Below are positions 1-43,149 of a stretch of 43,184 bases of DNA, piece by piece (position 1 is the stretch's first letter; each line of letters begins with the position of its first letter). Position numbers and translations under genes: made by a program. Origin of the DNA: Phycisphaerae bacterium (GTDB lineage Bacteria > Planctomycetota > Phycisphaerae > UBA1845 > PWPN01). Below the pieces are notes generated by a model. It was given only the letters and a program-made list of their open reading frames with translations, made no database searches and was not told where the DNA came from. The stretch covers positions 1 to 43,184 of the forward strand of contig JAAYDF010000114.1 in assembly GCA_012729395.1 (NCBI GenBank), given 5' to 3'.

Positions 1-112
1 CCGGCCTAAGCCGAAATCATACGCGAACGCGAGGCTCAACACCAGCAGTGCGGCCTGCGCGAGCGGTTAAACTCCGCGCGTCATGACCCCTCGCCGCACG
101 GCAGTACCATTC

Positions 113-185
113 GTGTCAGGAACCTTTGTTTGGCTGATCGGCGGGATTGGCGGTTGCCGATCAGCCAAACAAAGGTTCCTGACAC
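113..185. repeat. Perfect 30-bp inverted repeat (REP/RAYT-like palindrome)
   Basis: Positions 113-142 and 156-185 are exact reverse complements, with a 13-base loop at 143-155. Outer ends read GTGTCAGGAACC...GGTTCCTGACAC. It sits four bases past the stop of the LolA-like gene on the minus strand, so it could act as its transcript end, but no T-run follows the stem on that strand. Perfect 30-bp arms are longer than ordinary terminators and look like a mobile palindromic element. A remnant of a REP-associated transposase lies at the other end of the window. Confidence 0.85.
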
Positions 186-189
186 CTTT

Positions 190-1026
190 TTAGGGGTTGT
201 CGGCAGGGGGGAGGGGGATGGTGTCGGTCTCGTAGCCGGAGAGGTCGGGCAGGTTGAGCAGGCTCTCGACCAGGCCGGGGTTCACCTTGATGTCCTCAAA
301 GGAGGCGATGATCTCGTTGCCCTCTTGCTTTTCGCGGGTCTGGACACGGACGGGCAGATCGAGCGTCTTGTCGATGTAGAAGTGCACGGTGTCGTATTTG
401 CGGGCCATCTCAGAATCTGGTCTGGGCGTGCATTCGAGATGGTCGGTGTGCTTGGGGTCTTCGGTTTTTGGGGGCAAGACCTTTACGCTGAAGTGCTGGA
501 GGATGTCGGCCTTGCGTTGGCCGAAAGGCAACGGGAAGGGTCCCTGTCCGAGCTTGAAGACTTCGAGTGTTTCGCCGGGGCGTACGATCTCTCGGCGGGT
601 AATGGTAGCGGTGGTTTCGCGGGCCTCGATGTACCATCGTCCGTCGAAGACGTGCCACTGCTTGCGACGAGTGGTGATGCCCTCGTGTCTAAAACGGTCG
701 AACTCGATGAAGAACCGTGGGTTGGGCGAGGCCTGCTTGAAGCGGAGGATGCCGCGATGCTCCTGGCGGTCTTCGAGGACAGGGTCGATCTTGATGAACT
801 CGATCTTGGCCTCGATGCTGTCAATCTTGTCACCCTTGGCCTGGAGGCGATCGAGGATGCGTTCGACGGCGGGATCGAGGGGGGGCTCGGGCGGCTCGGC
901 TGGGGCGGTGGTGGTGGCCGGCTGCGTGGCGACCTCCTCGGCCGGTGCCCAAGCCGATGGGCACAGGATGGCCAGCAGAATCGCGAGTTGCGCGTACATC
1001 ACGAGATGTCTGCCAAGTCCGTTCAC
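190..1026 (-). CDS. Secreted LolA-like (outer-membrane lipoprotein-sorting family) protein
   Basis: The 278-residue product starts with a signal peptide (hydrophobic stretch about residues 9-27, ending near AWA/PAEE), then a Thr/Pro/Ala-rich linker and a globular domain. The domain has the alternating-strand pattern of LolA/LolB-fold proteins: an early segment on a computed quantity to be conserved (IDSIEAKIEF), a central FDGRWYIEAR and a late TLDLPVRVQTRE strand. Planctomycetes carry many such LolA-like proteins; whether this one carries lipoproteins is unknown. I kept the GTG start at 1026 because AAGGGG lies eight bases upstream; an ATG at 999 would also give a signal peptide. The gene stands alone, facing away from cobA-hemD. 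Confidence 0.6.
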   Translation of the reverse strand: MNGLGRHLVMYAQLAILLAILCPSAWAPAEEVATQPATTTAPAEPPEPPLDPAVERILDRLQAKGDKIDSIEAKIEFIKIDPVLEDRQEHRGILRFKQASPNPRFFIEFDRFRHEGITTRRKQWHVFDGRWYIEARETTATITRREIVRPGETLEVFKLGQGPFPLPFGQRKADILQHFSVKVLPPKTEDPKHTDHLECTPRPDSEMARKYDTVHFYIDKTLDLPVRVQTREKQEGNEIIASFEDIKVNPGLVESLLNLPDLSGYETDTIPLPPADNP

Positions 1027-16089: not shown

Positions 16090-18261
16090 ATGAGTCCCAA
16101 GTATGCGCAGATCGCATGGTGTATCGTGGTGGTTATCGGCGTATCTCGGCCCGCTCCGGTGAGTGGCTGGACCCAGATCGTGCCGGGCATCGATTACCAG
16201 GAGTACACCCTACCCGACCCCAACAACGTGTTCGTTGCCCGCATGGACCGGCACCATCCGTCGTGTTTCATCGACACGAGTCTGGCCAACGGCGTTTGTG
16301 GGGGCTCGTTGCAGACCATTGGCGGCCAGTTCAGCCTGTACGACGGGGCGATCACTTACTGGAACCAGGATTGGGGGGCGCAAAGCGACGTTGTGGTGGC
16401 GATCAACGGTGACTACTGGAATACCAGCACCTACATTCCGCTTGGCCCGCAGATCCAGGGTGGATGGGTCGTCAAGACGCAGGGGTCAGCCGCGTTCAGT
16501 TGGCTGGCCGACCGTCGGGCTCTGATGGGATACGGGCCGTGGTCTAACAAGCGTGTAAGCTACGCGACCGGGGCTACGCAGAGTGTGGACGATATCAACG
16601 TGGCTCGCGTTGCCGACAAGCTCATCCTCTATAGCAGCCACTATGGCGCGAATACCCAGACCGACGACACCGGCGTCGAGGTGCTTATCGAGATGGCTCG
16701 TCCGGCCGTGGTGGTCCGCTCGCAGGACGCTCCGGTCGGTATCGTCCGCCAAGTCCGCATGAACCAGGGCTCGACGCCTGTGCCGTTTGACCACGTGGTG
16801 CTCTCCGCCACCGGGGCGGCGGCGAGTACCTTGCTGCAGCACGCCACTGTCGGCTCGAGAGTGGCCATCTATCACACGACGACCCTGTCCTACCAAATCG
16901 ATTGGGCTGGCACCTACGCGGCCAGCGGAGGGCTCGAATTGCTCCAGACCGTCGACGCGGCCGATGGCGGCGTGATCGAACCGCAAGGCGGCTTGATTGC
17001 TCCGCGAACCGCGGTGGCTTTCAATCGGGACTACATCTACTTCATGGTGGTCGATGGGCGGTCGTCAGAAAGCATTGGCATGGACTTCAACGAAGTGGCC
17101 GACTTCTGCCGTTCGACTCTGGGGGCCACCACGGGTCTCTCTTGCGACGGGGGCGGGTCATCCACCATGGTGGTCAACGGCCTGGTCAAGAATAAGCCTT
17201 CTGATGGATGGCAGAGACCGGTTCCTAATGGAATCCTGATGTGCGTGCTGCAGCCCAAGCAACAGACCATGACCTTCCGCAGTGGTGACCGGGTCCGTAC
17301 CACCGGGTCGGCCAACGTACGCCATGGGCCGGGGAGCAATTACTCGGCCCTGGGCAGCGTGAGCGGTTATACCGAAGGCATCATTTTGGACCATTCGCTT
17401 CGCGGTGTGCGGGCCAGGAACTACAACTGGTGGAGGTGCGAGTTCGCCAACACGACCGGCTGGGTGGCCGAGTCCTTGCTCACGCTCGTTTCTCGCGGTG
17501 ATTTACCCTACTTCACGCAGGCCCCGGTCGACCGCCGCGTGTGCCGGGGCGAACCCGCCACATTCACCGTTGCGGCCCAGGGGACGGGAACACTCAGCTA
17601 CCAATGGCAGCGGCACGGCGTCGATCTGGAGGATGGAGCGGTCTTTGCCGGCGTCCACACGCCCACCCTGACCGTACTGGATGCCAGCGACGCGACCACC
17701 GGCAGCTTTCGTTGCGTGGTGACCGACGACGTTGGGCAGGCCACCTCGTACTCGGCAGCTCTGGCCCTGCGGTTCGCCACGATCTTCCAGGATCAGCCTC
17801 AGCCGGTTGAGGTCTACCCGCTTTCCTATCCGGGGGATGCGGCGTTCACCGTTCTCGCTCGCGGGGAAGGCGAGGTCACCTACCGTTGGCAGAAAGGCGG
17901 CCAGGATCTGGTGGATGACGGGCATATTGCCGGTGCCGCCACGTCCACGTTGACGGTCTTCGACGTGGATTATCGAGACGCGGGTCTGTATCGCTGCCGG
18001 GCCTCGGCCGGATGCGGCGATACCTACTCCGACGAGGTCGGGCTGACGGTTTACTCGGCCGATTTTGACGGCGACGACGACGCGGATCTCGATGATTTTG
18101 CCCACCTGCAGGCGTGCTTGGGGATTCTGGAGGTCAAGCTGACCGATCCCACCTGCGCCGATACCGATCTTGACCGTGATCGCCGTGTTGATCGCGACGA
18201 TCTGGTCCTGTTTTTGCGGTGCGCGGATGGCCCCGGTGTTCCCTTGCGACCGGGTTGTTGA
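16090..18261 (+). CDS. Secreted phosphodiester glycosidase (NAGPA-like) with SH3, Ig-like and dockerin-like domains
   Basis: The 723-residue protein has a signal peptide (about 1-26), then an NAGPA/exopolysaccharide-type phosphodiester glycosidase domain (about 27-395) with the conserved CDGGGSSTMVVNG (Asp353-Gly-Gly-Gly-Ser-Ser), VVAINGDYW and MVVDGRSSESIGM. A bacterial SH3 (about 395-465; NVRHGPGSNYSALG) follows, then two Ig-like domains (about 472-560 and 565-650; SYQWQRHGVDLEDG and TYRWQKGGQDLVDDG), each ending in a Tyr-containing CxC-type strand. The end (about 652-716) has two EF-hand loops (DFDGDDDADLDDF and DLDRDRRVDRDDL), dockerin-like. It probably cleaves a phospho-sugar diester in surface polymer. 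A TACAAT at 16040-16045 may be its -10. Confidence 0.82.
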   Translation: MSPKYAQIAWCIVVVIGVSRPAPVSGWTQIVPGIDYQEYTLPDPNNVFVARMDRHHPSCFIDTSLANGVCGGSLQTIGGQFSLYDGAITYWNQDWGAQSDVVVAINGDYWNTSTYIPLGPQIQGGWVVKTQGSAAFSWLADRRALMGYGPWSNKRVSYATGATQSVDDINVARVADKLILYSSHYGANTQTDDTGVEVLIEMARPAVVVRSQDAPVGIVRQVRMNQGSTPVPFDHVVLSATGAAASTLLQHATVGSRVAIYHTTTLSYQIDWAGTYAASGGLELLQTVDAADGGVIEPQGGLIAPRTAVAFNRDYIYFMVVDGRSSESIGMDFNEVADFCRSTLGATTGLSCDGGGSSTMVVNGLVKNKPSDGWQRPVPNGILMCVLQPKQQTMTFRSGDRVRTTGSANVRHGPGSNYSALGSVSGYTEGIILDHSLRGVRARNYNWWRCEFANTTGWVAESLLTLVSRGDLPYFTQAPVDRRVCRGEPATFTVAAQGTGTLSYQWQRHGVDLEDGAVFAGVHTPTLTVLDASDATTGSFRCVVTDDVGQATSYSAALALRFATIFQDQPQPVEVYPLSYPGDAAFTVLARGEGEVTYRWQKGGQDLVDDGHIAGAATSTLTVFDVDYRDAGLYRCRASAGCGDTYSDEVGLTVYSADFDGDDDADLDDFAHLQACLGILEVKLTDPTCADTDLDRDRRVDRDDLVLFLRCADGPGVPLRPGC

Positions 18262-18393: not shown

Positions 18394-20217
18394 CTACCTG
18401 AGCGAGTAGCCGAGCACTACGGGGATTCCGCCGGGCAGGATGTTGGGCGGCGGAGTGACGCTGACGCCGAGCTGGAGCACCTGGGGTCCCTCGTCCGGCA
18501 TGCCGACCTGGACTTGGAACTGCTCGGGGGTTGGTTCGCCCTGGATGCCGAGCCATTCGCACAGTGCACCGGAGACGGTCGCCTGGACTTTCTCCGGTGG
18601 CAGGCCCTTGAGCTGGGGTTGCAGGGCGAGCAGCAGGGTGGACAACCGTGCGGCGAAGATCTGGTAGGGCAGGCTGACCTCCAGCATGCCGTTGGCGTCG
18701 AGTCGTACCGGGCGGGCAGCCGTCAGGCCGTTCCAGACGATGGCATCATCGTGGTCGCGGACGCCGACCACCGCGTTCAAGCCGCCGAAGGCCAACTCCT
18801 CGATCTTGGGCTGGGGCATGAGCGTGTCGGTGGGGCCGAACTTCTTGTCGCCTTTCTTGCCGCCCTGAACGGTGGCGAAGCCCTCGATCCGGCCGCGGGA
18901 GAAACCGCTCACCGCGGTGGGCCAGCCGATCGCGGCAAAGCTGGCCGCCGCCGTGCACGCGACCGCGATCGAGCCCGGTGCCCAGACGAGGTCTTTGTCT
19001 GCGAGGCACTCTTCGCGGTAGTGGAACTCGAGATCCTTCTCCTCCTCGGTGCCGTAGGCCGTCCGCAGCAGGGATCGCCCGAACACCAGGGCGAGCATGC
19101 GGGCGTAGGGCTCACCGCGAAGTGTCTTCCACTTGGCGAACTGCCATTGATCGAACATGGCGATGACGTTGGGCAAGGTCGGCACCTGCCAGGCGTGCTT
19201 GACTCCGAGGAACTCGGGCGAGGCCCCGGCGATCGCGACGGCGGGCAGGCTGGCCGCGTTTTGGGCGAGGGTGTCGAGCAGTTCCATGTCCGGAGCGGTG
19301 TTGCCGAACTCCATGCCCAGCACGATCAGGTCCGGAGCGGGGGCCCCTTCGTCGAACACCGGGTCGATCAGCAGGGTGGTCAGTCGGTCCACGAGTGCTT
19401 CTTTGGTGCTGTGCAGCAGGGACAATTGCACGCCCTTGCGGAAATCGGTGTGGGAGGTGATGAACGCCGCGGATCGCCAGGCCGACTCGATCGCCTGGAC
19501 CGGCGGACTGTGAAGGACCGTGGTAAGCCAGGCGGAAAGCCGTTTGTCGATTTCGGCCAGCGTGCGGCGCATGGCGGAGGCTTCCTCCGCGGGGATCGAA
19601 GTCCCGCCTCCCGCGGCGGCGGCCACGGCGGCGGCCAGCGGGGAGCGCGGCGGTGGGGCGGTCGCCGGGGATTCCGTGTCGCCAAGGTCGAGCTGGCTAA
19701 GCAGGCCGTCCACGGCGTTGGCGTCCGCCGCCGGTGCGCCCGGCGTCCAATGAATCGCTTCGACCAAAAATTGCATACCCGCGTCAGCGGAAGCCGCGGC
19801 GGCCACCGCCGACTTGATCTGCTCGGCGGACGCTTTGCCGCGCATTCGCTCGACCACCTTGGCCCGGATTGCCAGCAATGCCTGACAGGCGGGCAACTGC
19901 TCCGCGACACTTCGCGGGTTCATGGCCTTGAGCGAATCGAGCTTGAGGTTGACCTCAGCCATGACGCTGCCGGTGGCGGTGGGGTCGGCCAGCGTGAAGC
20001 GGGTCGTCGGGGCGGCTTGGGCTAGCACCGCGTCGAAACTGGGCGGCGTGACCGCCACCACCCGATCCGCCAGCGGGCCGGATACCGTCCCGTTCTTGCC
20101 CCCCGCGAAGTCGGCAATCAGCAGGATGTGGTAGGGGGTCTGCGTGTCGCCCGCCGGGCCGCCTTGAGGGGCCGGCAACTCGACTTCCATCTCGAATGCT
20201 CCGCTCATGTCGCTCAT
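18394..20217 (-). CDS. tssBC: T6SS contractile sheath, TssB-TssC fusion
   Basis: The 607-residue protein joins both sheath subunits in one chain. Residues about 25-150 are TssB/VipA-like: PYHILLIADFAGG, then EVNLKLDSLKAMNPRSVAEQ with LPACQALLAIR, the VipA core pattern. An Ala/Pro-rich linker (about 155-215) contains GLLSQLDLGD, which resembles the ClpV-binding helix at the TssC N-terminus. Residues about 215-607 are TssC/VipB-like: EIDKRLSAWLTTVLHSP, AIESAWRSAAFI, PDLIVLGMEFG and EKDLEFHYREEC. The C-terminus is shorter than usual. The fusion would polymerise round the Hcp tube and contract to drive it. ATG 20217 follows GGAG at eight bases. It has a structured leader and an upstream promoter. 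Confidence 0.8.
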   Translation of the reverse strand: MSDMSGAFEMEVELPAPQGGPAGDTQTPYHILLIADFAGGKNGTVSGPLADRVVAVTPPSFDAVLAQAAPTTRFTLADPTATGSVMAEVNLKLDSLKAMNPRSVAEQLPACQALLAIRAKVVERMRGKASAEQIKSAVAAAASADAGMQFLVEAIHWTPGAPAADANAVDGLLSQLDLGDTESPATAPPPRSPLAAAVAAAAGGGTSIPAEEASAMRRTLAEIDKRLSAWLTTVLHSPPVQAIESAWRSAAFITSHTDFRKGVQLSLLHSTKEALVDRLTTLLIDPVFDEGAPAPDLIVLGMEFGNTAPDMELLDTLAQNAASLPAVAIAGASPEFLGVKHAWQVPTLPNVIAMFDQWQFAKWKTLRGEPYARMLALVFGRSLLRTAYGTEEEKDLEFHYREECLADKDLVWAPGSIAVACTAAASFAAIGWPTAVSGFSRGRIEGFATVQGGKKGDKKFGPTDTLMPQPKIEELAFGGLNAVVGVRDHDDAIVWNGLTAARPVRLDANGMLEVSLPYQIFAARLSTLLLALQPQLKGLPPEKVQATVSGALCEWLGIQGEPTPEQFQVQVGMPDEGPQVLQLGVSVTPPPNILPGGIPVVLGYSLR

Positions 20218-20443: not shown

Positions 20444-20737
20444 TCAGATTCTGCCCTTGGGCGGCATGCTGCGTTGCCACGCGTCAAGGTGCTTGCGCAT
20501 CTCGTAGTCCGAGACCTCGCAGCCACCGCCGCCCAGTGACCGATCCACAATAGCCGCCGCTATTGCCGCCTCGGGCCCGCCGCCCAGACCGGCACGGGCG
20601 AACCGCTCATCGAACTGGAACCCGCGCACCCGGGCCAAGCTGCGCATCTGCTCGAGCAACGCGCCGCAGTCGTAGGGATCATAGTGTAACCAGTTCCGCA
20701 GAAAATCCCCGACTTTGGCTTCGACTAAAGAGTTCAT
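20444..20737 (-). CDS. T6SS-island protein of unknown function (97 aa)
   Basis: I do not recognise this 97-residue protein. It is mostly helical and acidic-basic mixed: EAKVGDFLRNWLHYDPYDCG, then LLEQMRSLARVRGF, a glycine loop (AGLGGGPEAA), an Ala-rich helix AAIAAAIVDRSLGGGG and YEMRKHLDAWQRSM. It starts at ATG 20737 after GGAGG and has its own -35/-10 upstream (20771-20799). It precedes the sheath fusion by 226 bases and is co-directional. A sheath or baseplate accessory is possible, but this is inference from position alone. Confidence 0.55.
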   Translation of the reverse strand: MNSLVEAKVGDFLRNWLHYDPYDCGALLEQMRSLARVRGFQFDERFARAGLGGGPEAAIAAAIVDRSLGGGGCEVSDYEMRKHLDAWQRSMPPKGRI

Positions 20738-20903: not shown

Positions 20904-21437
20904 CTATTTGAGTTTCCGCCACTTGAGTCCATACGCGACCAACCTGCGGGTGATCGGATGAATCTGCACCCACAGGTAATCGCCATCCACACGAACATCC
21001 TTGATGTAATGTTCCCATTCCAGCCGGGCGACCTGGTAGCCGCCGTCGGCGAACGGCTCGTGCCCGAACCCGCTCAGCCGGGCGTCGCGGGGGATCTCCA
21101 TTGCCCCGGCCGCGGCACGGAGCGCTTCTTCCTGGCTGAGGCGGGCGTCTGTGGGCGGCTCGGCCAGCCGATCCACGCAGCGGTGCATCACCTCACCGCC
21201 GTCCGCATCCAGGTGTACGCGGGCGTCGGACCAATGCCGCCATGTCCGCACCCGAACCTGCCACCCCGCGGGCTGTGGTTGGGGATCGGTCCGCTCGACT
21301 TGGAAATACCACTCCGGCCGGGTGGTCGAGATCCCGCCCCGTACCAGGCGGGCTTTGAGCATTCGGACCACCAGGTCCTCGGCCTTTTCCGGCAGGCCGG
21401 GAGGTGGCTTCGCAGTTGGCTGATCCGCGGGACTCAT
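20904..21437 (-). CDS. PepSY-like domain protein, T6SS island (177 aa)
   Basis: The 177-residue protein has no signal peptide. The N-terminal half (about 35-100) is a beta-rich part with TTRPEWYFQVER, WQVRVRTWRHW and ARVHLDADGGEVMHR. The C-terminal half (about 103-177) runs SQEEALRAAAGAME, PRDARLSGFG, then YLWVQIHPITRRLVAYGLKW, the helix-strand-strand order of a PepSY module (the inhibitory fold in M4 peptidase propeptides and YpeB). The end resembles the two neighbouring proteins. Its start overlaps the stop of the 80-residue gene (ATGA). I infer an immunity or inhibitor role; the evidence is fold pattern and place only. Confidence 0.55.
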   Translation of the reverse strand: MSPADQPTAKPPPGLPEKAEDLVVRMLKARLVRGGISTTRPEWYFQVERTDPQPQPAGWQVRVRTWRHWSDARVHLDADGGEVMHRCVDRLAEPPTDARLSQEEALRAAAGAMEIPRDARLSGFGHEPFADGGYQVARLEWEHYIKDVRVDGDYLWVQIHPITRRLVAYGLKWRKLK

Positions 21438-21719: not shown

Positions 21720-22217
21720 TCACTCCCCGCCTTGTCGATACCGGCTCAACGGGCCGGTCAGGCACTGGATGACTTTCATGGAGTCCGGCTCAGCCCACAC
21801 GTGCACGATGTCGTTCTCTCCGGCCGTTGGGGAGGGAATCAGCACTGCGTACAGTGTCCAGCCCACGGGCGGAAGCTCTTCAGGTCGCATTACGCCCAGC
21901 CGGGTGTCCGCGGGCAGCTCGAGCTCGTGGGCGACCGAGAGCCGGAATAACTCCTGTTCGGCAAGGGCCGGTCGTGGCAAACCGCGGCGCTCGTCGTCGC
22001 GCCAGCCGATCTGCCGGCCCTCTTCATCGTAGAACACCACGATATCGCCGGTGCGCTCGAGCACGTGCAGCCGGTGGTCGGACATCTGCCGGAGCAGCAT
22101 CTCGTTCCACTCGTTTTCCGCGAAGCAGTGGACGATCCGGGGCTCTCGGGGGCCGTTCTCGGCAATTGCCTTGCCCACCTGATCGACGGCCGTTTGTTCC
22201 AGTTGCTTGGCGTTCAA
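21720..22217 (-). CDS. PepSY-like protein coupled to the caspase-like gene (165 aa)
   Basis: The 165-residue product is not recognised by a named family. The front (about 1-85) is mixed: MNAKQLEQTAVDQVG, IVHCFAENEWNEM, and a strand pair HVLERTGDIVVFYDEEG. The back (about 88-160) has EQELFRLSVAHELELPADTR, then GWTLYAVLIP and IVHVWAEPDSMKVIQCL, the same helix, PADTRL turn and paired strands as its two neighbours. The start is TTG (22217) with AGGAG seven bases before, and it overlaps the TGA of the peptidase gene (TTGA), so the two are made together. That coupling is what one expects of an effector-immunity pair. Confidence 0.5.
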   Translation of the reverse strand: MNAKQLEQTAVDQVGKAIAENGPREPRIVHCFAENEWNEMLLRQMSDHRLHVLERTGDIVVFYDEEGRQIGWRDDERRGLPRPALAEQELFRLSVAHELELPADTRLGVMRPEELPPVGWTLYAVLIPSPTAGENDIVHVWAEPDSMKVIQCLTGPLSRYRQGGE

Positions 22218-24133: not shown

Positions 24134-24182
24134 CCACTGCTCTCCGCCGCCCGCTGACGGGTGGCACCTCTGCCCGGCCTGC

Positions 24183-25388
24183 TTACCAGGGCAATTCGAT
24201 CGCGTCGTCATCCGGGCCGGCACCCGCCGACCCATCTCCCGCCGCGTCCTGATCTCCTTCCGGATCGTCGTCCCAGACATCCTCCTCGGCGAGGTAGCCG
24301 TTGCTCTGCCTGGCGGCTGCGGTGCGAGGCGATTCCGGCTCAGGCTGTTGCGATTCCTCTTGCTGTGGCGGCTCCAGATCGGCCTTGTTGGAGATTCCCG
24401 GGAAGTTGGCCTCACCCGAAGCCGGCTGAAGCCCGTCGAAACGGATGTACCCTTCCTCGTCGGTATCGCCGGATACCGCTTGCCCGTCGTCCAGGGTTAC
24501 GGAGACGTTCTCGCCAGCGATTGGCATACCGTCAAAGTCGAACAGCCTGACTCCCAACCAAGTGGGTGGGCGGGGTTGTTGCTCCTGCTCGGCGGGGGCG
24601 AGTGGCCCGGTTTGCTCGGGCGGCGGAGCGGCGGGCGAGGCCGCGGGCTGCGAAGCTGCTTGCGCAACCTGCTGCTGGGCGGGGCTGGTGCTGGCGGGTG
24701 GTGGTGGTGGCGAAGACGCGCCGCCGCCGCCGCTCCCGCCGGAGTCGCCGATCATCACCGTCGGGCAGCCCATCGCGATCGGATCCGAACCGCCGCAAGC
24801 CTCCATGATTTTGTCGCCCTGGCGGCAGGCCGGCAGGTTATCGATCATCACATTCTCGCTGCCCTTGCTTACCATGCCGGGGCCATGCGGTGGGATAGGG
24901 CAGGGGATGGGGCAGATGTGCGTATCGGCCATTCCGCCGATCGCCGCGAACACCGCGGAGGACGCCGCCGCCATGGCGGCTTGGATGCCCTTGGTGTAGG
25001 CCGTGTTGGCTGCCGGTTGACCGCCCGGCACCGCCGACGCCGTGGACCAAGCCGCAGTCAGGCCGAAGTTCGTAGCGATCAGCGTCGCCGAGGCCCCTGC
25101 GGCGGCTCCAAGAGCAGCCGGGTTCATCTCCGCCGCCGCTTGGCCCGCCGCCTGCACCAGGCCGCCGACGATATTGGCGATGTCCGAGGTGGCGCTGGGG
25201 GGCGTGAGTACGGGCTTCTGCATGAACTTGTTGACGGAGTTAGACACCGACTCAACGGCCGCGCCTACGCTGGCCGGCAGGGCTCGCCAAGCCGGCATGT
25301 ATCCGATCATCACGTCGACGCTGCCGATTCCGGGATTCATCGGCACGCCGTGACTGGTTAGATCGCCTACTCGTGCGGCCATCGGCAT
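24183..25388 (-). CDS. PAAR-domain spike protein with large insertion and C-terminal extension
   Basis: The 401-residue protein tips the VgrG spike. The PAAR unit is split: residues about 4-35 (ARVGDLTSHGVPMNPG ... VMIGYMPAWRA) and about 152-215 (THICPIPCPIPPHG, NVMIDNLPACRQGD, CPTVMIGDSG). His13, His157, Cys159, Cys163 and His168 are candidate zinc ligands. Between them are about 110 residues of Ala/Gly-rich helices (ANIVGGLVQAAGQAAAEM, AAWSTASAVPG, AMAAASSAVFAAIGG) that could be membrane-active. A Pro/Gln linker then leads to a small beta domain (about 292-345; GMPIAGENVSVTLDDG) like that in VgrG, and an acidic tail. Effector cargo is probably the next gene. Confidence 0.8.
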   Translation of the reverse strand: MPMAARVGDLTSHGVPMNPGIGSVDVMIGYMPAWRALPASVGAAVESVSNSVNKFMQKPVLTPPSATSDIANIVGGLVQAAGQAAAEMNPAALGAAAGASATLIATNFGLTAAWSTASAVPGGQPAANTAYTKGIQAAMAAASSAVFAAIGGMADTHICPIPCPIPPHGPGMVSKGSENVMIDNLPACRQGDKIMEACGGSDPIAMGCPTVMIGDSGGSGGGGASSPPPPPASTSPAQQQVAQAASQPAASPAAPPPEQTGPLAPAEQEQQPRPPTWLGVRLFDFDGMPIAGENVSVTLDDGQAVSGDTDEEGYIRFDGLQPASGEANFPGISNKADLEPPQQEESQQPEPESPRTAAARQSNGYLAEEDVWDDDPEGDQDAAGDGSAGAGPDDDAIELPW

Positions 25389-28491: not shown

Positions 28492-28570
28492 TCGAGTTCT
28501 TCCTTCAATACGGAGCCGCCCGCGAGGGTCCAACGAGGCCTCACGGGTGATGCCCGTATCGGCCCGGCGG

Positions 28571-31180
28571 TCACGTGTTCTTCTGCCAGGCCGATTCGTC
28601 GCGGTTCGGGAACGTCACCTCGCATGTGCCCGGGCTGATGCCGGTCACGTGCGCCCGTCCATTGGCATCCAGGGAGCCTTCGAATACCTTGCCGGCTGAG
28701 TCGGTCACGCGATACCGCTCGCCCGCCACCGGCATTCCCTCCTCATCCACCAGACTGATATCGATCCACGTCGTTTCGCTGGTCTCTTCTTCAACCTCGG
28801 TTTGCTCGAATTCGTGGCCGGCGACGTCGGCCGGAGCTTCTGCCGCCGCGAGTGCCTCGCCCCCGCCGTAACTGGTGTCCTGGCCGAACTGGACTGTGTC
28901 GGCCGCACCGGGCTCGGCGGGCGCTTCCGGCGAGGTCGCCGACGCGGTCACCGGGCCCACCGGCGGGCCCGACCCGCTGTTGATGTTCACCAGCGGGCCG
29001 CCCACGATGAAAATCGCCGCCGGAGTGAGCACAATGCTGCTGCCGCCGCACTTGAGCTCGATGCCCGACGAGGCCTCCAGCTTGATGCTCATGGCCTTGG
29101 CTGCATAGGTCGTCGCGACTTCGTGTTTGTGGTTGCCGTCGAACTTCTCGACCACATCCCCGCTGACGTTCGTCGAATGCGTGCCGGTTACCTGGATCGA
29201 GACTTTGCCCTGGACTTTCAGCGAGTCGTCCGTCTTGATCTCGACCTTGCGGCTGCCCTCTTTGATCGTCAGGCTGTAATCCTTCTTGACCTGCTCGATC
29301 CGATCATTGCCCACGTCCAAATGGCGATTGGCCCCGATGGTCTCCACCCGGTCGTTCTGGGCCCGGACATGCAGATCCTTCTGGGCATGGATGAGGATCT
29401 GTTCACTGTCCTTGAGATCCTCGAAGCGGATTTCGTTGGCCCCTTCGCCGCCCTTGCTGCTGCGCGTCTTGATGACGCTCTTGGTCTTCTCGTCGGGCAG
29501 CGCGTAAGGCGGCATGTGGTCCGCGTTGAATACTCGTCCGACGATGATCGGCTGGTCCGGGTCGCCCTCCAGGAAATCGACGATCACCTCCTGGCCCACG
29601 CGCGGCAGGAACATCATGCCGTATTGTCCGCCGGCCATGCCCTGACTCACCCGGATCCAGCAGGAGGAGTTTTCGTCGAACTTGCCTTCACGGTCCCAGT
29701 TGAACTTGACCTTCACGCGGCCGTATTCGTCGGTGTAGATCTCCTCGCCCGACGGTCCCACCACACGGGCTGTCTGTGCCCCCCGCATGACCGGCCAAGG
29801 GGTGACCCGGGCCGGGCGATACACCACCGCGGCCGGGATGCACTCGAAGCGGCACTCATACTCGAGGGCGTCCGGGTGCAAGACGATCGCCTCGGTCACG
29901 TCGTCGATCAGGTTGGGCAGAGTCAGCGCTGCCAGCGGGTTCCCGCCCGAAGCGGCCACCGCGGCCGGCAACTCCCGGGCTACCTGCCCCGCGTGATACA
30001 GCCATTGGGTCAGTGCCCGATTGGCCGTCGGGTCGCCGCCCTGCAACCGGGCTCCGATTTGCAGCAACGCCCCAGCCAGTTCCCGGATCATCGGGTTCTC
30101 ATTCTGCTGGGCGGTCCGCAGCGATTGCATCACTCGCTGGTCGAACAGCACCGTTCGCCCGTTGGTCCCCGTGCTACTTGCCGTCGTCGCCTGTCGGCCC
30201 TGGTGGCTGACCGAAGTGAGCAGATATGAGCCGTTCATCGAGGACGCGGGATGCTCGGTCAGCTCGAACGTGTAGCCCGGTGCCAGCCGATACGAGTTGC
30301 TTTGCCCCACGCCGAGGATGCGGCTGGCCTCGAACTCCTCCGCCCGAAGTTGGGCCAGAGTCGTCCCGTCCGCTTGCAGCTTGTACTCACCGGGGTAGTC
30401 GGAAAACTCGAGTCCCGCGTCGCGCCCCGAGTCCGCCTTGGCTTGCAGGTTGAGCTTGGGGTTCTCGAAGCTGAAGTCGTCGAGTACCACCGCGCCCGGC
30501 CGGACCGCTTGGCTTCGCCGGAAGCGGTAGACGTTCTCGGTCTCCACCTTCAGGCCTGTCGGATCGCAGTAGCGAATCTGCGGCTCGCCCTCGATGGGGG
30601 CGTACGCGCTGGCGTCGTCGGCCAGCACAAGGATGTGCGCCTCCTGCGTCTGCTCGAAGTACCACCAAATCCCCTCTTCTTCCATGAGCCGGCAGATGAA
30701 GTTGTAGTCCGTTTCCCGGTATTGCACACAGTAGTCACGGGTGTTGTGCGTGCCGTTGAGGGTCATGCGTACGCGATCGGAAGTGATACCCGCCTGCGTC
30801 AGCACGTCCGAGATGATGTCCGTGACTGATTTGTTCTGGAAGATCCGCGAGCCGTAGCGATGGGTGAGGGTCCAGACGGCCGGTACCAACTCCGCGCGGA
30901 AGAATTGCCGACCCACCGTCTGCCCGGTCAGCTCGAACCGGCTCACGATGCCGTGAAAATACCGCGTGCCCGCCGCCGTGTTGATGCTCAACGCGGCCGA
31001 CTTGCCCACGATCTCCGCGAAGTCGACTTGATCTTCTTCCGAGACCAGCTCGATCTCGAACCGGTACAGTTGGCAGAGCCCTTCCGTGCCCCGGTATCGG
31101 GTTACCAGAAACTGGTCGACCGGGGCCTCGCCAACCTGGAAGGCCAACTGCGAGCTGCTAAGATCCCTTATCAGAGCCAT
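28571..31180 (-). CDS. vgrG: T6SS spike protein VgrG (TssI)
   Basis: The 869-residue protein has a gp27-like ring: QVGEAPVDQFLVTRYRGTEG, SEEDQVDFAEIVGK, YRETDYNFICRLMEEEGIWW, YFEQ. The gp5-like OB domain has TDEYGRVKVKFNWDREG and WIRVSQGMAGG, then the beta-helix stem with ANEIRFEDLKDSEQ and KVEIKTDDSLKVQGKV. An unusual helical insert lies in residues about 340-430 (MRELAGALLQIGARLQ-like text, LTQWLYHAGQVARELPAAV). The last 60 residues (about 808-867; LVDEEGMPVAGERYRVTDSA) form a small beta domain matched in the PAAR protein. It caps the Hcp tube. Its start is 15 bases after tssH, with AGGAG. Confidence 0.92.
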   Translation of the reverse strand: MALIRDLSSSQLAFQVGEAPVDQFLVTRYRGTEGLCQLYRFEIELVSEEDQVDFAEIVGKSAALSINTAAGTRYFHGIVSRFELTGQTVGRQFFRAELVPAVWTLTHRYGSRIFQNKSVTDIISDVLTQAGITSDRVRMTLNGTHNTRDYCVQYRETDYNFICRLMEEEGIWWYFEQTQEAHILVLADDASAYAPIEGEPQIRYCDPTGLKVETENVYRFRRSQAVRPGAVVLDDFSFENPKLNLQAKADSGRDAGLEFSDYPGEYKLQADGTTLAQLRAEEFEASRILGVGQSNSYRLAPGYTFELTEHPASSMNGSYLLTSVSHQGRQATTASSTGTNGRTVLFDQRVMQSLRTAQQNENPMIRELAGALLQIGARLQGGDPTANRALTQWLYHAGQVARELPAAVAASGGNPLAALTLPNLIDDVTEAIVLHPDALEYECRFECIPAAVVYRPARVTPWPVMRGAQTARVVGPSGEEIYTDEYGRVKVKFNWDREGKFDENSSCWIRVSQGMAGGQYGMMFLPRVGQEVIVDFLEGDPDQPIIVGRVFNADHMPPYALPDEKTKSVIKTRSSKGGEGANEIRFEDLKDSEQILIHAQKDLHVRAQNDRVETIGANRHLDVGNDRIEQVKKDYSLTIKEGSRKVEIKTDDSLKVQGKVSIQVTGTHSTNVSGDVVEKFDGNHKHEVATTYAAKAMSIKLEASSGIELKCGGSSIVLTPAAIFIVGGPLVNINSGSGPPVGPVTASATSPEAPAEPGAADTVQFGQDTSYGGGEALAAAEAPADVAGHEFEQTEVEEETSETTWIDISLVDEEGMPVAGERYRVTDSAGKVFEGSLDANGRAHVTGISPGTCEVTFPNRDESAWQKNT

Positions 31181-31195: not shown

Positions 31196-33922
<2,727 letters not shown>

Positions 33923-34065: not shown

Positions 34066-35211
34066 TCACGCCGCTGGGGCGCTCCTGACCGATTCGCCCG
34101 CAATCCACGGACCGTGCCGCACCGTCGCCTCGAACATCACCGCCGTCTCGGGTACCTCTTGTGTTGCCACCCAACTGGTGTACCCCAGCCGCACGGTGTC
34201 GCCGTGGGCCGCCATCCTCGCCGGCGGCACCTGCCCGCTCTTGAGCCGGATCTCCACATTGAACGCCAGCGGATCCTGCCCATACAGCCGCACCAGAGCC
34301 TGCGTCTGGGCGAACCGCTCGCCGTCCGGGAGCAGCGACAAGTACGTCGCCCAATCCACCGGCCCAAGCACCAGGTTGAACTCGCCGTTCAGATCGTAGA
34401 CCTGCTCTCCGACCGTGAGATCCTCGCCCAGGCGGCAATTCGCACTGCCGATGACGTTCAAGTCCTGGCTCTTGAGCGTGACCCACCGACCGACGCACTG
34501 TTGAACCTGCACCGTCGTGTCAGGCCAGTAATCGGTGAGCAGTCCTTCAAGCCCGGTGGCCGACCGTGGCCGTTGCGTGAGCAGGCCCGCGTAGCGGATC
34601 ATGCGGATCGGATCGACGCCCAGCTCCTGCTGGGTTGTCCCCGGCGAGAGCCCGATCAGCCACAACAGGTAATCGCTGACCACGTCCCGGTCAGGCATGC
34701 CAAACGTCACGTGATAGCGGTATTTCAGCCACGAGCGGTAGAACAGCGAGATCAGCCTGTGGTGCAGGACGTCGAGAAAGTCCCGCGTCGGGGCCGAGCC
34801 CGGCTCGACGCCCGGTGTGTGCTCCGGCTTTGCCTCCAGGGCCGGCTCCACGGATCGCAGAATATCCACCGCGTAGTGCAGCGGCAACGGAGTCGAAACC
34901 CCGTACAGTCCCAGGAAGGTCACGTCGATCCGGTACGATGATCGGCCGGTCGCCTCGTCAACCCGGGTCGCGATCTGTCGCACATCCGTAGCCGGGAAGC
35001 CCAACTCGACATCCGGCCGGAAGTGCACTAACTCGCGCCCGGTCGGGCCTCGTCCGCCCACCGGGATGTACCCCGCACCCAACAGACGTTCCAATAGCCA
35101 GACCGCCTGGAAGAACGGAAACTCCCAGCCGCGATCCGTCAATCGACGTACCAGCACCCCACCGGCGTTTTCGCTCGTTCGATCTGTTGCCCCAACTCCC
35201 GACATCACCAT
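34066..35211 (-). CDS. tssG: T6SS baseplate protein TssG
   Basis: The 381-residue protein has the TssG blocks: RGWEFPFFQAVWLLERLLG at about 25-43, HFRPDVELGFPATDVRQI, VTFLGLYGVSTPLPLHYAVDI, FLDVLHHRLISLFYRSWLKYR, and LTQRPRSATGLEGLL with the FLD-x-HHRL signature. With TssF it builds the baseplate wedge around the VgrG hub. The best start is ATG 35211 (GAAGGG upstream); ATG 35205 is also possible, and the longer frame to 35277 crosses the tssF-tssG hairpin. It is followed 143 bases on by tssH. Confidence 0.9.
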   Translation of the reverse strand: MVMSGVGATDRTSENAGGVLVRRLTDRGWEFPFFQAVWLLERLLGAGYIPVGGRGPTGRELVHFRPDVELGFPATDVRQIATRVDEATGRSSYRIDVTFLGLYGVSTPLPLHYAVDILRSVEPALEAKPEHTPGVEPGSAPTRDFLDVLHHRLISLFYRSWLKYRYHVTFGMPDRDVVSDYLLWLIGLSPGTTQQELGVDPIRMIRYAGLLTQRPRSATGLEGLLTDYWPDTTVQVQQCVGRWVTLKSQDLNVIGSANCRLGEDLTVGEQVYDLNGEFNLVLGPVDWATYLSLLPDGERFAQTQALVRLYGQDPLAFNVEIRLKSGQVPPARMAAHGDTVRLGYTSWVATQEVPETAVMFEATVRHGPWIAGESVRSAPAA

Positions 35212-35265
35212 CCGCCCTTCATGGTCTCCTGCTCCAACTCCTATTCCTACTCTTCCGTCTCCCAC

Positions 35266-35287
35266 GCCGGGTCGCAAGCGACCCGGC
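35266..35287 (-). terminator. Perfect 10-bp hairpin between tssF and tssG
   Basis: GCCGGGTCGC (35266-35275) and GCGACCCGGC (35278-35287) are exact complements with a two-base loop. It is 62 bases after the tssF stop and 55 bases before the tssG start. Purine-rich tracts flank it on the minus strand. No T-run follows, so it may be an RNA-stability or processing site rather than a terminator. Confidence 0.5.
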
Positions 35288-35349: not shown

Positions 35350-37164
35350 TTACGCCTTCTCTCGCACTGTCGCCGGGGTCAGTTGCTCGCCCCACCGCGG
35401 CGCAAACGCATACACCTGTCCGGACCGCGTGAACCGGACCGTCAGTTGCACGTACGAGTTGAGCGTCACGTACAAGCCCAGGAAGCGGTCGAGAATCTGG
35501 GCGAACAGGTATGCGTCGCCTTCGCCCGCGAAGTGGTCCTCGTTCAACTCGACCTCGACCTGCGTGCCGCGCAGCGGTGCCCCGCGGACCATTCGTTCCC
35601 CGAAGCTCGATCGCACCGCGACAATCCCGTCCAGCATCCGCTGGTGAGCCAGAGCTCGTTGTGCGTCCTGGGCCGACTGAAAATCGTAAATCCGCAATAG
35701 CTCCTTGAGGTGGGTAGCATCCGCCAGCGAAACGTAATTCAGCGACAGATGCGAAATGAGCTTCCAGTGCAGACCCCGACCCAGCGGCGGGCATACGGTC
35801 GGTGTCGGCTTGACCACGTTGCGAAATCGTGTGTTCGCCGGCGACCGGTCCGTCGGTTCGCAGATGTCGCCCGAACGCAGCTCCTCGGGGAGGTGCCGGT
35901 TCGTGCACGTCAGCTCGATCGAAACCGTCTCCTCCGCCGGAAGCCCCCGCTTGTCCCCGGCAATCACGAACGATACATACGTGTCCGTGCCGAATCGAGG
36001 ATCGCCTCCGCGCACGTTGGGCCGCAAATGCGTCTGGTAGTACGCCTCGCCCCTGGCCTCGCCGGACACCTTGTGCTGGAACGAGTAGAAGGGCGAATAA
36101 CGCCGTGTCTCCATGCTCTCCGAACGGATCAGCCCGACGACGTCATCGACCCGGAAAGTCTCCACATGCCAACGGTCCGCCACCCCCGTCTTGGATGGCT
36201 GGATCAGGTATTCCGTGCGATCGTGTTTCAGGCGGATCGGGTCCGCCGGATGCTTGAAGAGGTTGATGATCGGCACACAGTGCAGGCGGACATTCTCACG
36301 CGAAACCAGCGGGTAGGATTCAAACCGCCGGTTGAAAATGATCCGCACCTCTACCGTGTCGGTCAGCTCCAGTTGGGAGACCGCCCGGTCCAGCCCCTTG
36401 AGGTCCACGAACAGAAAGCGATCCTTGAAGGCAAAGTACTCCTGCAGCAGCCGGTAGCCGGGAAAGGCGTGTGCCGGGTACGGCAGTACGCCCTCGCGAC
36501 GATCCAGTCCCAAGGCCGATACCGGCGAGGCGCCCAACGGCACCTCGCGACGGCGGCCGTCGGCGGACCCGCTGCTGACCGTCACTTGTTCGACGTGGGC
36601 CGACAGCAGAAGGTACAACATGAACGACGCCCGCGGCTCGCCCGTCAGGTGCAGCCGCACCGAACCCAGCTCCAAGTCCGACAACTGCGTCTTCGCCGAG
36701 GTCTGGAAGGTCAACACCAACGCCGGCGATTGAGCGGCCGGCGTTTCCAGCCGAACGTCACGCAGCGTCCACGGCCGCAGCATCGCCGGCCACGCGGATT
36801 GATATCGACAGCGAGTGCCCGCCACCGGCACGCTCGCGAACTCGGCGCCCGCCTCGACCCGCTGCGGCCCCTGCATCGCGTCGATCTCAGGCAGGAACTC
36901 CAGGATGCTCATCGACGGCACCGGCCGAAGATAGTGCGGCCACAGTAGCCCCATCATGCTCGCCGTCAGCTCGGGAAGCTCGTCATCCAGCTTCTGCCGG
37001 ATTCGACCGCAGAGAAATGCGACCCCCTCCAGGATGCGTTCCACGTCCGGGTCCGAACCCCGGTCGCTCAGGTAGCGGGCAATCTCCGGGTTGGCTCGGG
37101 CGAAGTCCGGCCCTACCTCCCGCAGATACTCAAGCTCGTCCTGGTAGTACGTGTTGAGCGACAC
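35350..37164 (-). CDS. tssF: T6SS baseplate protein TssF
   Basis: The 604-residue protein has the family opening NTYYQDELEYLREVGPDFAR (residues 4-23), HPEI-like NPEIARYLSDRGSDPDVER, and GVAFLCGRIRQKLDDELPE with LTASMMGLLWPHYLRPVPS; late blocks include SLNYVSLADATHLKELLRIY and GLYVTLNSYVQLTVRF. It forms wedges of the baseplate with TssG and TssE. I chose the GTG at 37164: GGGAG lies nine bases upstream and the usual TssF opening starts there; ATGs before 37164 would add an atypical tail. The end overlaps no other gene. Confidence 0.9.
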   Translation of the reverse strand: MSLNTYYQDELEYLREVGPDFARANPEIARYLSDRGSDPDVERILEGVAFLCGRIRQKLDDELPELTASMMGLLWPHYLRPVPSMSILEFLPEIDAMQGPQRVEAGAEFASVPVAGTRCRYQSAWPAMLRPWTLRDVRLETPAAQSPALVLTFQTSAKTQLSDLELGSVRLHLTGEPRASFMLYLLLSAHVEQVTVSSGSADGRRREVPLGASPVSALGLDRREGVLPYPAHAFPGYRLLQEYFAFKDRFLFVDLKGLDRAVSQLELTDTVEVRIIFNRRFESYPLVSRENVRLHCVPIINLFKHPADPIRLKHDRTEYLIQPSKTGVADRWHVETFRVDDVVGLIRSESMETRRYSPFYSFQHKVSGEARGEAYYQTHLRPNVRGGDPRFGTDTYVSFVIAGDKRGLPAEETVSIELTCTNRHLPEELRSGDICEPTDRSPANTRFRNVVKPTPTVCPPLGRGLHWKLISHLSLNYVSLADATHLKELLRIYDFQSAQDAQRALAHQRMLDGIVAVRSSFGERMVRGAPLRGTQVEVELNEDHFAGEGDAYLFAQILDRFLGLYVTLNSYVQLTVRFTRSGQVYAFAPRWGEQLTPATVREKA

Positions 37165-37293
37165 TGGATTCGACTCCCTGCTTCGTCGGCTCTGAGGTTT
37201 GGCCTCAGTGCTTGCGTCCTCCGTGCACCCCGGTGGGCCGCGTGCCGCTTCGCCCTCCACCGATCCTATGCCGCCGCCCTTCAGGCAGTGCAG

Positions 37294-37337: not shown

Positions 37338-37766
37338 TCAGCCGCCCACCTCGAAGGCCCCGTCACCCCGCAGTGCCGTCTCATACCAGACGCGATGTTC
37401 CTGCGTACGGCCCACCAGTGTCGCCTCAATCCGAAAACCCAGCGTCTGAGCCCGCGGTGACTCGCTGTCTCGTTCGCAGATCACACGCACCCGCCGAAGG
37501 CGAGGCTCGTACTTCTCGATCGCCGTCCGGATGGCTTCCGAGACCACCTGGATATGGTCGCCGCTCCCCGCCAACAGATCCACCATGGCCGGCAAACCGT
37601 AATCGCCCTGAGCCTGGCTCATCCCGTGCCGGGTATTCAGCAGCCGGTCCAGATGAAGCCGGACAGACTCCATCAAGGCGTGCAGATCCTCGCTCGTGTT
37701 CGCGGCAAACCGCTCGAACCGCTCACGCTTCGCCAGACGTTCCAGGAAAGTCTGCTCGCGGCTCAT
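37338..37766 (-). CDS. tssE: T6SS baseplate protein TssE (gp25-like)
   Basis: The 142-residue protein is a gp25/lysozyme-like baseplate component: QTFLERLAKRERFER, MESVRLHLDRLLNTRHG, the conserved AQGDYGLPAMVDLLAG, IRTAIEKYEPRLRRVRV and a closing EATLVGRTQEHRVWYETAL strand pair. It initiates sheath assembly at the baseplate. The start codon is ATG 37766. It follows hcp after a 154-base gap with a strong stem-loop, and precedes tssF by 173 bases. Confidence 0.92.
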   Translation of the reverse strand: MSREQTFLERLAKRERFERFAANTSEDLHALMESVRLHLDRLLNTRHGMSQAQGDYGLPAMVDLLAGSGDHIQVVSEAIRTAIEKYEPRLRRVRVICERDSESPRAQTLGFRIEATLVGRTQEHRVWYETALRGDGAFEVGG

Positions 37767-37920: not shown

Positions 37921-38400
37921 TCAACCGCCACCCGGCGCTCGCCAGCGATCCTGCTCGACAACGCTGTCCGGAATCCAGTTCCACTCGATCTCCTCGTACA
38001 CGAAGCTCACCTGCTCCATGTGACGGTACGACTCGTTCGCGGGCACGAAGCTCATCGGCATGTACGGCCGCATGTCCACGATCCGCGCGTTGCGCAGCGT
38101 GATCGTGTAGTACTTCGCCTCCTCGCGAGTCGCGGGGTCGATCCGGTAGAAGTCTAGAATCACTTCCGCCAGGTTCTGGCCGGTGCACATCGCCTTGTGG
38201 AAGCCCGGCGTCGCCTTGTCGACCACCTTCACGACCCGTAGCGGGCTGTGCACACGCACGCCGGTCGCCATACCGGTCGTCAGGTCGACCGGCTGATGAA
38301 TGTGATGCTCGATTTCGAAAACATCACTGGTATCCTCGCGACCCTCCTTCTCGGATGATCCTGGATACTCCGCCACCTTTAGATTGCAGGGGGTAGGCAT
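37921..38400 (-). CDS. hcp: T6SS tube protein Hcp (TssD)
   Basis: The 159-residue protein is the hexameric Hcp ring that stacks into the inner tube and is secreted. FEIEHHIHQPVDLTTGMATG, RVHSPLRVVKVVDKATPGFH, AMCTGQNLAEVILDFYR and EAKYYTITLRNARIVDMRP match the Hcp family pattern throughout. The last 15 residues (DSVVEQDRWRAPGGG) are a loose tail. ATG 38400 follows AAGGAG at eight bases. It is the first gene of the island, before the 532-bp spacer; no other T6SS gene lies upstream. Confidence 0.92.
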   Translation of the reverse strand: MPTPCNLKVAEYPGSSEKEGREDTSDVFEIEHHIHQPVDLTTGMATGVRVHSPLRVVKVVDKATPGFHKAMCTGQNLAEVILDFYRIDPATREEAKYYTITLRNARIVDMRPYMPMSFVPANESYRHMEQVSFVYEEIEWNWIPDSVVEQDRWRAPGGG

Positions 38401-38932
38401 GTTCGATTCTCCTTGTCCTACGAGTCCCTCGGACTGAAACCACCGAATCCCAACGGACGCCTTCGAACCCGATATCCGCGGGTCGTCGACGTGACACTAT
38501 CCTCGAGTCGCTTTCGGTTGGCTTCCACCCGACCGTTTTGACCACCGCGACCTTCGCGGGCGCCTTGTGCAGTCAGTCGGCCAACCCGCCTCTGTTCTTA
38601 ACACGTCCCGTGCCGAACTTGCACAAGAATCACGTCATCGGTCACCGCAATTCCCTTACCCGCTGACCAACAGGGGGTTACAGTGTGAAGAACGTTCCGA
38701 CAGACCCGCCGATCGTCCCAGCCGTGCACTCGCGGTCTGCGCCCACAGACCCAGACCATCCCCCGCTTGGGTCCATACGCCCAGGAATCCGCAAAGTGGG
38801 ACTGTTTTCGGACCAACCTCCGGAGGCCGGGCTCGGCCAGCAACGGGCCTGGCACCCGTGGCCTCGCCGACAGCGCTGCTGGCAGACCTCCCCGGTGGGG
38901 GGGCATCGAGAGCTTCTCATCTCAAACGTGAC
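38401..38932. other. 532-bp intergenic region upstream of hcp
   Basis: I see no credible coding frame. It should hold the hcp promoter on the minus strand, but no -35/-10 pair stands out, nor a sigma-54 site. Small hairpins lie at 38423-38435 (AGTCC/GGACT, 14 bases before the hcp ribosome site) and 38545-38559 (CCGCGA/TCGCGG). Confidence 0.6.
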
Positions 38933-40069: not shown

Positions 40070-40383
40070 GGCCCAGGCTCCGCAGGCTTGCGGTACAGAA
40101 TCGCCACCCGCCCGATACGCCGCAGCAGGTGGCAGCCCACCAATCGCGCCAGGGCGTCAGCCAACTCCTCGGCGCCGGCGGCGTCGTCCGCATCGAGTCG
40201 CACCTTCAACAGGCAGCCCTTGCCGAACGCTTCTCTGACCTGTTGGGCGAACGTTTCACTGAGCCCCTTGCGCCCCACGGCCATGTGCGCTTTGAGCCGA
40301 TGCGCCTGCCCGAGTAACGCCCGTCGCTCCGCCGAATTCGGCGCCGGCCCCGCACCGCCCTGATATGATGAATGCTCACTCAT
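40066..40383 (-). CDS. yhbY: YhbY-family (CRM domain) RNA-binding protein
   Basis: The 105-residue protein is one CRM/YhbY domain: RRALLGQAHRLKAHMAVGRK with GLSETFAQQVREAF, the GxxG-like loop, LLKVRLDADDAAGAEELADAL, ARLVGCHLLRRIGRVAILYRK. YhbY binds pre-50S ribosomal particles and assists assembly. The N-terminal 20 residues (Ser/Gly-rich) are outside the domain. ATG 40383 was chosen because a TTGCAT/TATGGT promoter ends seven bases before it, so the message looks leaderless; upstream starts lie in the promoter. It is coupled by a four-base overlap to the PL22-like gene. Confidence 0.9.
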   Translation of the reverse strand: MSEHSSYQGGAGPAPNSAERRALLGQAHRLKAHMAVGRKGLSETFAQQVREAFGKGCLLKVRLDADDAAGAEELADALARLVGCHLLRRIGRVAILYRKPAEPGP

Positions 40384-40390
40384 AACCCAC

Positions 40391-43113: not shown

Positions 43114-43149
43114 TGTTGTTGTGACTGCACTTTGAAAGGAGGAGCCCTG

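What the first reader, a model, noticed from the sequence alone, without database searches (positions are those of the whole stretch)
18394..20217. One-piece sheath subunit: TssB fused to TssC
Residues about 25-150 look like VipA/TssB and about 215-607 like VipB/TssC, joined by an Ala/Pro linker. T6SS sheaths are normally built from separate TssB and TssC chains that form heterodimers. A fusion fixes the 1:1 stoichiometry and changes how the inter-subunit strand exchange can be made. The linker also has a possible ClpV-binding helix (GLLSQLDLGD).
Basis: partly seen in the sequence, partly recalled or inferred. Interest (0 to 1): 0.6.

Follow-up and report, generated by a model that had tools for sequence, protein, structure and literature searches.

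The report
Extra one-piece type VI sheath protein
This planctomycete gene really joins the two halves of the bacterial 'spring-loaded harpoon' sheath into one protein, but the same genome still has the normal two-piece sheath genes, so the joined protein is a conserved extra sheath part whose place in the machine is unknown.

Summary
The fusion is real. Window 18394-20217, minus strand, is one open 607-aa frame: TssB/VipA (residues 18-146), a linker with a TssC-type ClpV-binding motif, then TssC/VipB (about 219-607) ending in the gp25/TssE-like handshake fold. It is not an assembly join: full-length homologues at 49-56% identity occur in many independent Phycisphaerae genomes, under purifying selection.

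This genome has a single T6SS (one TssF, one TssK) and also encodes a separate TssB and TssC. In this bacterial order, 28 of 33 sheath-bearing genomes surveyed have a fusion, and all 28 also have a canonical TssC. On unbroken contigs the fusion lies 15-20 kb downstream of tssC in the same cluster, past vgrG and PAAR. The fused copy evolves about twice as fast as canonical TssC and has mostly lost the acidic residue needed for contraction in Vibrio, but keeps the assembly lysine and a ClpV motif that tracks its partner TssC's motif type. Best reading: a second, position-specific or minority sheath subunit, recycled by the same ClpV.

Prior art: roseobacter TssCL (2022), a larger TssB-TssC fusion beside canonical genes. 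New variant of a known kind.

The parts
18394..20217 (-). Fused TssB-TssC sheath-like protein, 607 aa
   Evidence: Open frame; Pfam VipA + VipB; conserved in 28 genomes of the order
19780..20166 (-). TssB/VipA-like half (residues about 18-146)
   Evidence: PF05591 E 2e-13; PDB TssB/VipA by sequence; pLDDT about 90; 5urw TssB TMt 0.68
19640..19740 (-). Linker (residues about 160-193) with TssC-type ClpV-binding motif NAVDGLLSQLDLGD
   Evidence: Aligns with own canonical TssC N-terminus and EAEC TssC1 peptide DSVYASLFEKINL (PMC5048182); motif type matches the partner canonical TssC in 26 genomes; helix 166-175 in the model
18736..19563 (-). TssC/VipB-like core (residues about 219-494)
   Evidence: PF05943 E 8e-40; VipB structures Z 16-17
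18394..18699 (-). C-terminal handshake (gp25/TssE-like) domain, residues 507-607
   Evidence: T4 gp25 Z 9.0, T6SS TssE 6gj1 Z 8.9
20444..20737 (-). Small conserved 97-aa ORF directly upstream of the fusion, unknown
   Evidence: Homologues at the same place in L037, L041, L042; sequence read
37921..38400 (-). Hcp (TssD)
   Evidence: PF05638 E 2e-30
37338..37766 (-). TssE (gp25)
   Evidence: PF04965 E 9e-18
35350..37260 (-). TssF
   Evidence: PF05947 E 1e-169
34066..35277 (-). TssG
   Evidence: PF06996 E 2e-84
31196..33922 (-). TssH / ClpV
   Evidence: AAA_2, AAA_lid_9, Clp_N
28571..31180 (-). TssI / VgrG
   Evidence: Phage_GPD E 1e-94, Gp5_trimer_C
24183..25388 (-). PAAR protein
   Evidence: PF05488 E 9e-9

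Best explanation
The gene encodes a second, one-piece sheath subunit of the bacterium's single T6SS, alongside the canonical TssB/TssC pair. The chain folds like a phage or eCIS sheath protomer: TssB supplies the N-terminal part, TssC the core and the C-terminal handshake domain. It most likely assembles into the same sheath as the canonical heterodimers, either as a dedicated ring at one end (baseplate side or distal cap side) or as a minority component. After firing it is stripped by the same ClpV through the TssC-type helix now sitting in the linker. SHOWN: the fusion, its conservation, its coexistence with canonical TssB/TssC in one T6SS, its domain make-up, and the ClpV-motif match by sequence. 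INFERRED: co-assembly, its position in the sheath, and ClpV recycling.
For: Single T6SS with separate TssB and TssC plus the fusion. Twenty of 20 fused-gene genomes across several families have exactly one TssK and one TssF gene (G247's TssF is read as two pieces); 19 of 20 also have a standalone TssC, the exception G273 having its T6SS genes scattered over several short contigs. In the order, 28 of 28 genomes with the fusion have canonical TssC. In seven unbroken contigs the fusion is 15-20 kb downstream of tssC on the same strand; in four read gene by gene the order is tssA-B-C-hcp-E-F-G-clpV-vgrG-...-PAAR-...-fusion. Sheath fold in both halves and a gp25/TssE-like C-terminus. Lysine equal to VipB K223 (needed for assembly, PMC5797969) kept in 28/28. 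ClpV motif type follows the canonical TssC of the same genome: AVDxLIxxLDLD with VVDxLLGQLDLG in 20 genomes, SSLLDEI with GGSILDxVDE in 6. In the roseobacter relative TssCL the N-terminal TssB domain is 81-85% identical to the cluster's own TssB, as expected of a protein that must fit the canonical sheath. Established knowledge (not tested here): eCIS particles such as AFP use several sheath paralogues at set positions.
Against: No biochemical or structural evidence of co-assembly. The fused TssC half is only 25-33% identical to its own canonical TssC and evolves faster (mean 58% against 83% identity between genomes; lower in 190/190 pairs), which could mean a different job. The acidic residue equal to VipB D333 (needed for contraction) is D/E in all 35 canonical TssC but in only 8/28 of this family. 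The ClpV-motif match spans two clades, so it may be one evolutionary change. In several other planctomycete families the fusion lies away from the main T6SS cluster.
Confidence: 0.55

Rival explanations
1. Alternative sheath: the fused protein forms a complete homopolymeric sheath used instead of TssB/TssC under some conditions or with a particular VgrG/PAAR cassette, sharing the one baseplate, membrane complex and ClpV.
For: It has every domain a self-sufficient sheath protomer needs, in the order of single-chain sheaths, keeps the assembly lysine, and is encoded at the end of the vgrG-PAAR cassette.
Against: Always found beside the canonical pair, never alone in the order; the contraction-site acid is mostly lost; the related short family lacks the handshake domain altogether and so could not build a self-standing sheath.
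Confidence: 0.2
2. Non-sheath role: a sheath-derived adaptor or chaperone for the VgrG/PAAR/effector cassette or the baseplate, no longer polymerising.
For: Gene sits beside the spike/effector cassette in Phycisphaerae; roseobacter TssCL is directly next to vgrG; fast evolution; short relatives have lost the handshake domain.
Against: In this family both handshake ends, the assembly lysine and the ClpV motif are kept; a ClpV handle makes most sense on something built into a sheath.
Confidence: 0.17
3. The canonical TssB/TssC hits come from contamination or a second T6SS, and the fusion is the true sheath of the window's T6SS.
For: The genome is a 370-contig assembly with 3.4% contamination, and the canonical pair is on another contig.
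Against: Only one TssF and one TssK in the genome, with TssK on the contig of the canonical pair and TssF on the window contig; relatives carry all of these on one contig in one cluster.
Confidence: 0.03
4. Decaying paralogue with no function.
For: Faster evolution than the canonical copy.
Against: Open and full length in relatives, dN/dS about 0.08-0.21, present in 28 of 33 sheath-bearing genomes of the order.
Confidence: 0.03

Closest known systems
TssCL of roseobacters (PMC9515649, 2022)
   Same: TssB and TssC domains in one chain, encoded in a T6SS cluster that also keeps separate tssB and tssC; function unknown; near clpV and vgrG.
   Different: TssCL is about 1,550-1,690 aa with an extra N-terminal TssB domain almost identical to the cluster's TssB and a long repetitive spacer. 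Its C-terminal module matches the SHORT planctomycete fusion family (414-424 bits) rather than the window's family (74-75 bits). The paper reported it only from Alphaproteobacteria.
Canonical T6SS sheath TssB/VipA + TssC/VipB
   Same: Both Pfam families over cut-off, same fold, ClpV motif, handshake domain.
   Different: One chain; both NCBIfam equivalog cut-offs missed; TssC half only 25-33% identical to the genome's own TssC.
Single-chain sheaths of phages and eCIS (PVC, AFP, cyanophage A-1(L))
   Same: Whole-chain layout N-part, core, C-arm in one polypeptide (Z about 12-13).
   Different: Sequence ancestry is TssB + TssC, not phage sheath; carries a ClpV motif, which phage and eCIS sheaths do not use (established knowledge).

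Membership tests
T6SS TssB (VipA) + TssC (VipB) sheath proteins | Homology to PF05591 and PF05943 | tested here: met
   Both over gathering cut-off
T6SS TssB (VipA) + TssC (VipB) sheath proteins | Equivalog-level match (TIGR03358 TssB, TIGR03355 TssC) | tested here: not met
   48.1 bits against 97.25; 148.6 against 271.5
T6SS TssB (VipA) + TssC (VipB) sheath proteins | Two separate chains | tested here: not met
   One 607-aa frame
T6SS TssB (VipA) + TssC (VipB) sheath proteins | C-terminal handshake domain (gp25/TssE-like) | tested here: met
   Residues 507-607: gp25 Z 9.0, TssE Z 8.9
T6SS TssB (VipA) + TssC (VipB) sheath proteins | ClpV-binding helix before the TssC core | tested here: met
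   By sequence only: motif matches the own TssC in type; binding not tested
T6SS TssB (VipA) + TssC (VipB) sheath proteins | Acidic contraction residue (VipB D333) | tested here: not met
   Q in the window protein; D/E in 8 of 28 family members against 35/35 canonical
T6SS TssB (VipA) + TssC (VipB) sheath proteins | Polymerises into a contractile sheath | not testable with these tools
   Needs microscopy or biochemistry
TssCL (roseobacter fused sheath protein) | Two VipA domains and one VipB in a chain of about 1,600 aa | tested here: not met
   One VipA and one VipB in 607 aa
TssCL (roseobacter fused sheath protein) | Coexists with separate tssB and tssC in the same T6SS | tested here: met
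TssCL (roseobacter fused sheath protein) | Same clade of TssB-TssC module | tested here: inconclusive
   TssCL module matches the short fusion family; one origin of all fusions not rejected, p-AU 0.335
Phage/eCIS single-chain sheath | Single-chain sheath protomer layout | tested here: met
   Alignment to model range 1..589 for PVC, Z 12.2
Phage/eCIS single-chain sheath | Encoded in a phage/eCIS locus | tested here: not met
   Locus is a T6SS cluster

The most novel reading that the evidence does not exclude
Planctomycete (and, through TssCL, roseobacter) T6SSs build mosaic sheaths in which a fused, poorly contractile TssB-TssC protomer forms a dedicated ring at one end, setting where the sheath starts, stops or begins to contract.
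Probability: 0.3. Interest if true: 0.75.

Novelty: new variant of a known kind. Interest (0 to 1): 0.5.

Why it matters
T6SS sheaths are treated as polymers of one heterodimer. A conserved second, one-piece sheath protomer in single-T6SS genomes suggests position-specific sheath subunits as in eCIS particles. It extends the TssB-TssC fusions, reported only from roseobacters, to Planctomycetota, and identifies the widespread core (a TssB-TssC module) behind the odd TssCL protein. It would make testable how a T6SS marks the ends of its sheath.

Tried and rejected
Replacement of the heterodimer: rejected, canonical pair present in the genome and its relatives. Assembly join: rejected. Second T6SS: rejected, one TssF and one TssK. 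Single origin of all fusions: neither shown nor rejected; the window family, the f30-type family and the tandem G169 pair form one clade (95), the short family another. N-arm linker length (longer linkers block contraction in Vibrio): comparison left undone, the alignment of the first strand is ambiguous and the script failed. Model confidence is limited (mean pLDDT 66.6 from 8 sequences; residues 430-517 below 50), so no claim is made on the outer domain. Literature: no hit on fused planctomycete sheaths; the roseobacter paper was found and read. Other phyla could not be surveyed because only genomes of this phylum had handles; the plasmid hits opened were canonical pairs or TssCL.

Full report
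THE OBSERVATION. The frame 18394-20217 lies on the minus strand and reads 607 residues without a stop. The ATG at 20217 follows a purine-rich GGTGGAG stretch. Pfam finds T6SS_VipA at 18-146 and VipB at 219-494, both above curated cut-offs; NCBIfam finds the same two but below both equivalog cut-offs. PDB sequence searches agree. The AlphaFold model (mean pLDDT 66.6, eight sequences) matches VipB structures at Z 16-17, single-chain eCIS and phage sheaths at Z about 12-13 over nearly the whole chain, and T4 gp25 / T6SS TssE at Z about 9 over residues 507-607. The best TssB match is 5urw TssB, TMt 0.68. The chain therefore contains all parts of a sheath protomer.

NOT AN ARTEFACT. Seven independent Phycisphaerae MAGs hold full-length homologues at 50-55% identity. 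The class survey finds further ones at 49-56% and a second group at 32-36%. dN/dS in close pairs is about 0.08-0.21, so the gene is kept.

NOT A REPLACEMENT. The same genome has a standalone TssB (192-aa frame) and TssC (500-aa frame) on contig C235, with TssA, a TagF-like protein, TssM, TssL and TssK. The window contig holds Hcp, TssE, F, G, ClpV, VgrG and PAAR. There is one TssF and one TssK in the genome, hence one T6SS split over two contigs. Twenty of 20 fused-gene genomes from several families show a single TssK and a single TssF gene; 19 of 20 have a standalone TssC. In the order of G000, 33 genomes have a sheath match, 28 have the fusion, and all 28 also have canonical TssC, two of these truncated at contig ends. 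Where the contig is unbroken (G431, G440, G444, G453, G468, G567, G584) the fusion is 15-20 kb downstream of tssC on the same strand; in the four read in detail the order is tssM-tagF-tssA-tssB-tssC-hcp-tssE-F-G-clpV-vgrG-...-PAAR-...-fusion. In another family the fusion directly follows clpV (L054).

WHAT HAS CHANGED IN THE FUSED COPY. Between genomes the fused TssC half averages 58% identity where canonical TssC averages 83%, lower in all 190 pairs; the TssB half behaves alike (39-64% against 75-91%). The lysine equal to VipB K223, needed for assembly in V. cholerae, is kept in 28/28. The acidic residue equal to D333, needed for contraction there (PMC5797969), is D/E in 35/35 canonical TssC but in only 8/28 fused ones. 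The numbering of K223 and D333 was inferred through the 5mxn/5myu alignments.

THE CLPV HANDLE. In V. cholerae and EAEC, ClpV binds a helix at the TssC N-terminus (PMC4239648, PMC5048182). In the fusion this stretch lies in the linker. It matches the motif type of the canonical TssC of the same genome: AVDxLIxxLDLD with VVDxLLGQLDLG in 20 genomes, and SSLLDEI with GGSILDxVDE in the six genomes of another clade. It may be a single evolutionary switch.

FAMILY PICTURE. TssC-core trees put the window family (28 members) as one clade, joined with the f30-type family and the G169 pair (support 95), apart from canonical TssC. A third, short family (507-611 aa) lacks the C-terminal handshake domain and forms its own clade. 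A single origin of all fusions is not rejected (p-AU 0.335). In the phylum draw 83 of 392 genomes have a TssB match; by hand count at least 25 have an accessory fusion with both domains in one frame.

PRIOR ART. A 2022 study reported TssCL in roseobacters, a TssB-TssC fusion of about 1,684 aa beside canonical tssB and tssC, not detected outside Alphaproteobacteria (PMC9515649). In two Leisingera plasmids TssCL lies between clpV and vgrG. Its last 500 residues or so match the short planctomycete family over nearly that model's full length (414-424 bits), and its first 170 residues are 81-85% identical to the cluster's own TssB. So TssCL seems to be a TssB domain plus a long spacer plus a short-type TssB-TssC module. 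The window's compact family is a sister kind not described in the papers found.

MECHANISM. The best-supported reading is a second sheath protomer that co-assembles with canonical TssB/TssC, as a special ring or minority subunit, and is recycled by ClpV. Co-assembly and position are inferred. Alternative sheath and spike/effector adaptor remain open rivals.

Noticed in passing
window 38400-43184 and G000 contig C235 1-1107: In relatives hcp directly follows tssC; in this genome the T6SS is split between tssC (C235) and hcp (window), with unrelated genes upstream of hcp in the window.
   Followed up: partly
window 26452-28533 (-): Protein of up to 693 aa directly after VgrG with no convincing Pfam domain but a HEIFHPLMHVGH stretch like a zinc-protease site; candidate T6SS effector, homologues after vgrG in relatives.
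   Followed up: no
window 20444-20737 (-): Conserved 97-aa protein just upstream of the fusion, same place in three relatives; possible partner.
   Followed up: partly
window 21720-24415 (-) and 20904-21437 (-): Genes of unknown family between PAAR and the fusion, shared as a block with L038 only; looks like an exchangeable effector/immunity cassette.
   Followed up: no
L052, L086-L094, L132, L133: Short TssB-TssC fusion family lacking the C-terminal handshake domain, most ending in a conserved G-x-W type motif; spread over several planctomycete families and homologous to the C-terminal module of roseobacter TssCL.
   Followed up: yes
L109 22790-27424 (-), L110 13175-18256 (-): Leisingera TssCL spacer holds many repeats of the form VLxGLxxxxP between its TssB domain and its TssB-TssC module; function unknown.
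   Followed up: no
L131 5054-7243 (-) (G294): Canonical-type TssB and TssC in one open frame as the only sheath match in that MAG; either an independent replacing fusion or a sequence error at a stop codon.
   Followed up: partly
L027 1264-3381 (+) (G221): Another in-frame fusion of canonical-type TssB and TssC, with a separate TssB/TssC elsewhere in the same genome.
   Followed up: partly
L048 16482-19843 (-) (G169): Two tandem fused TssB-TssC frames (653 and 507 aa) about 13-17 kb from the canonical pair in the same region.
   Followed up: partly
window 16090-18261 (+): NAGPA phosphodiester glycosidase domain joined to an SH3-like domain and two immunoglobulin-like domains, next to the fusion on the other strand.
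   Followed up: no
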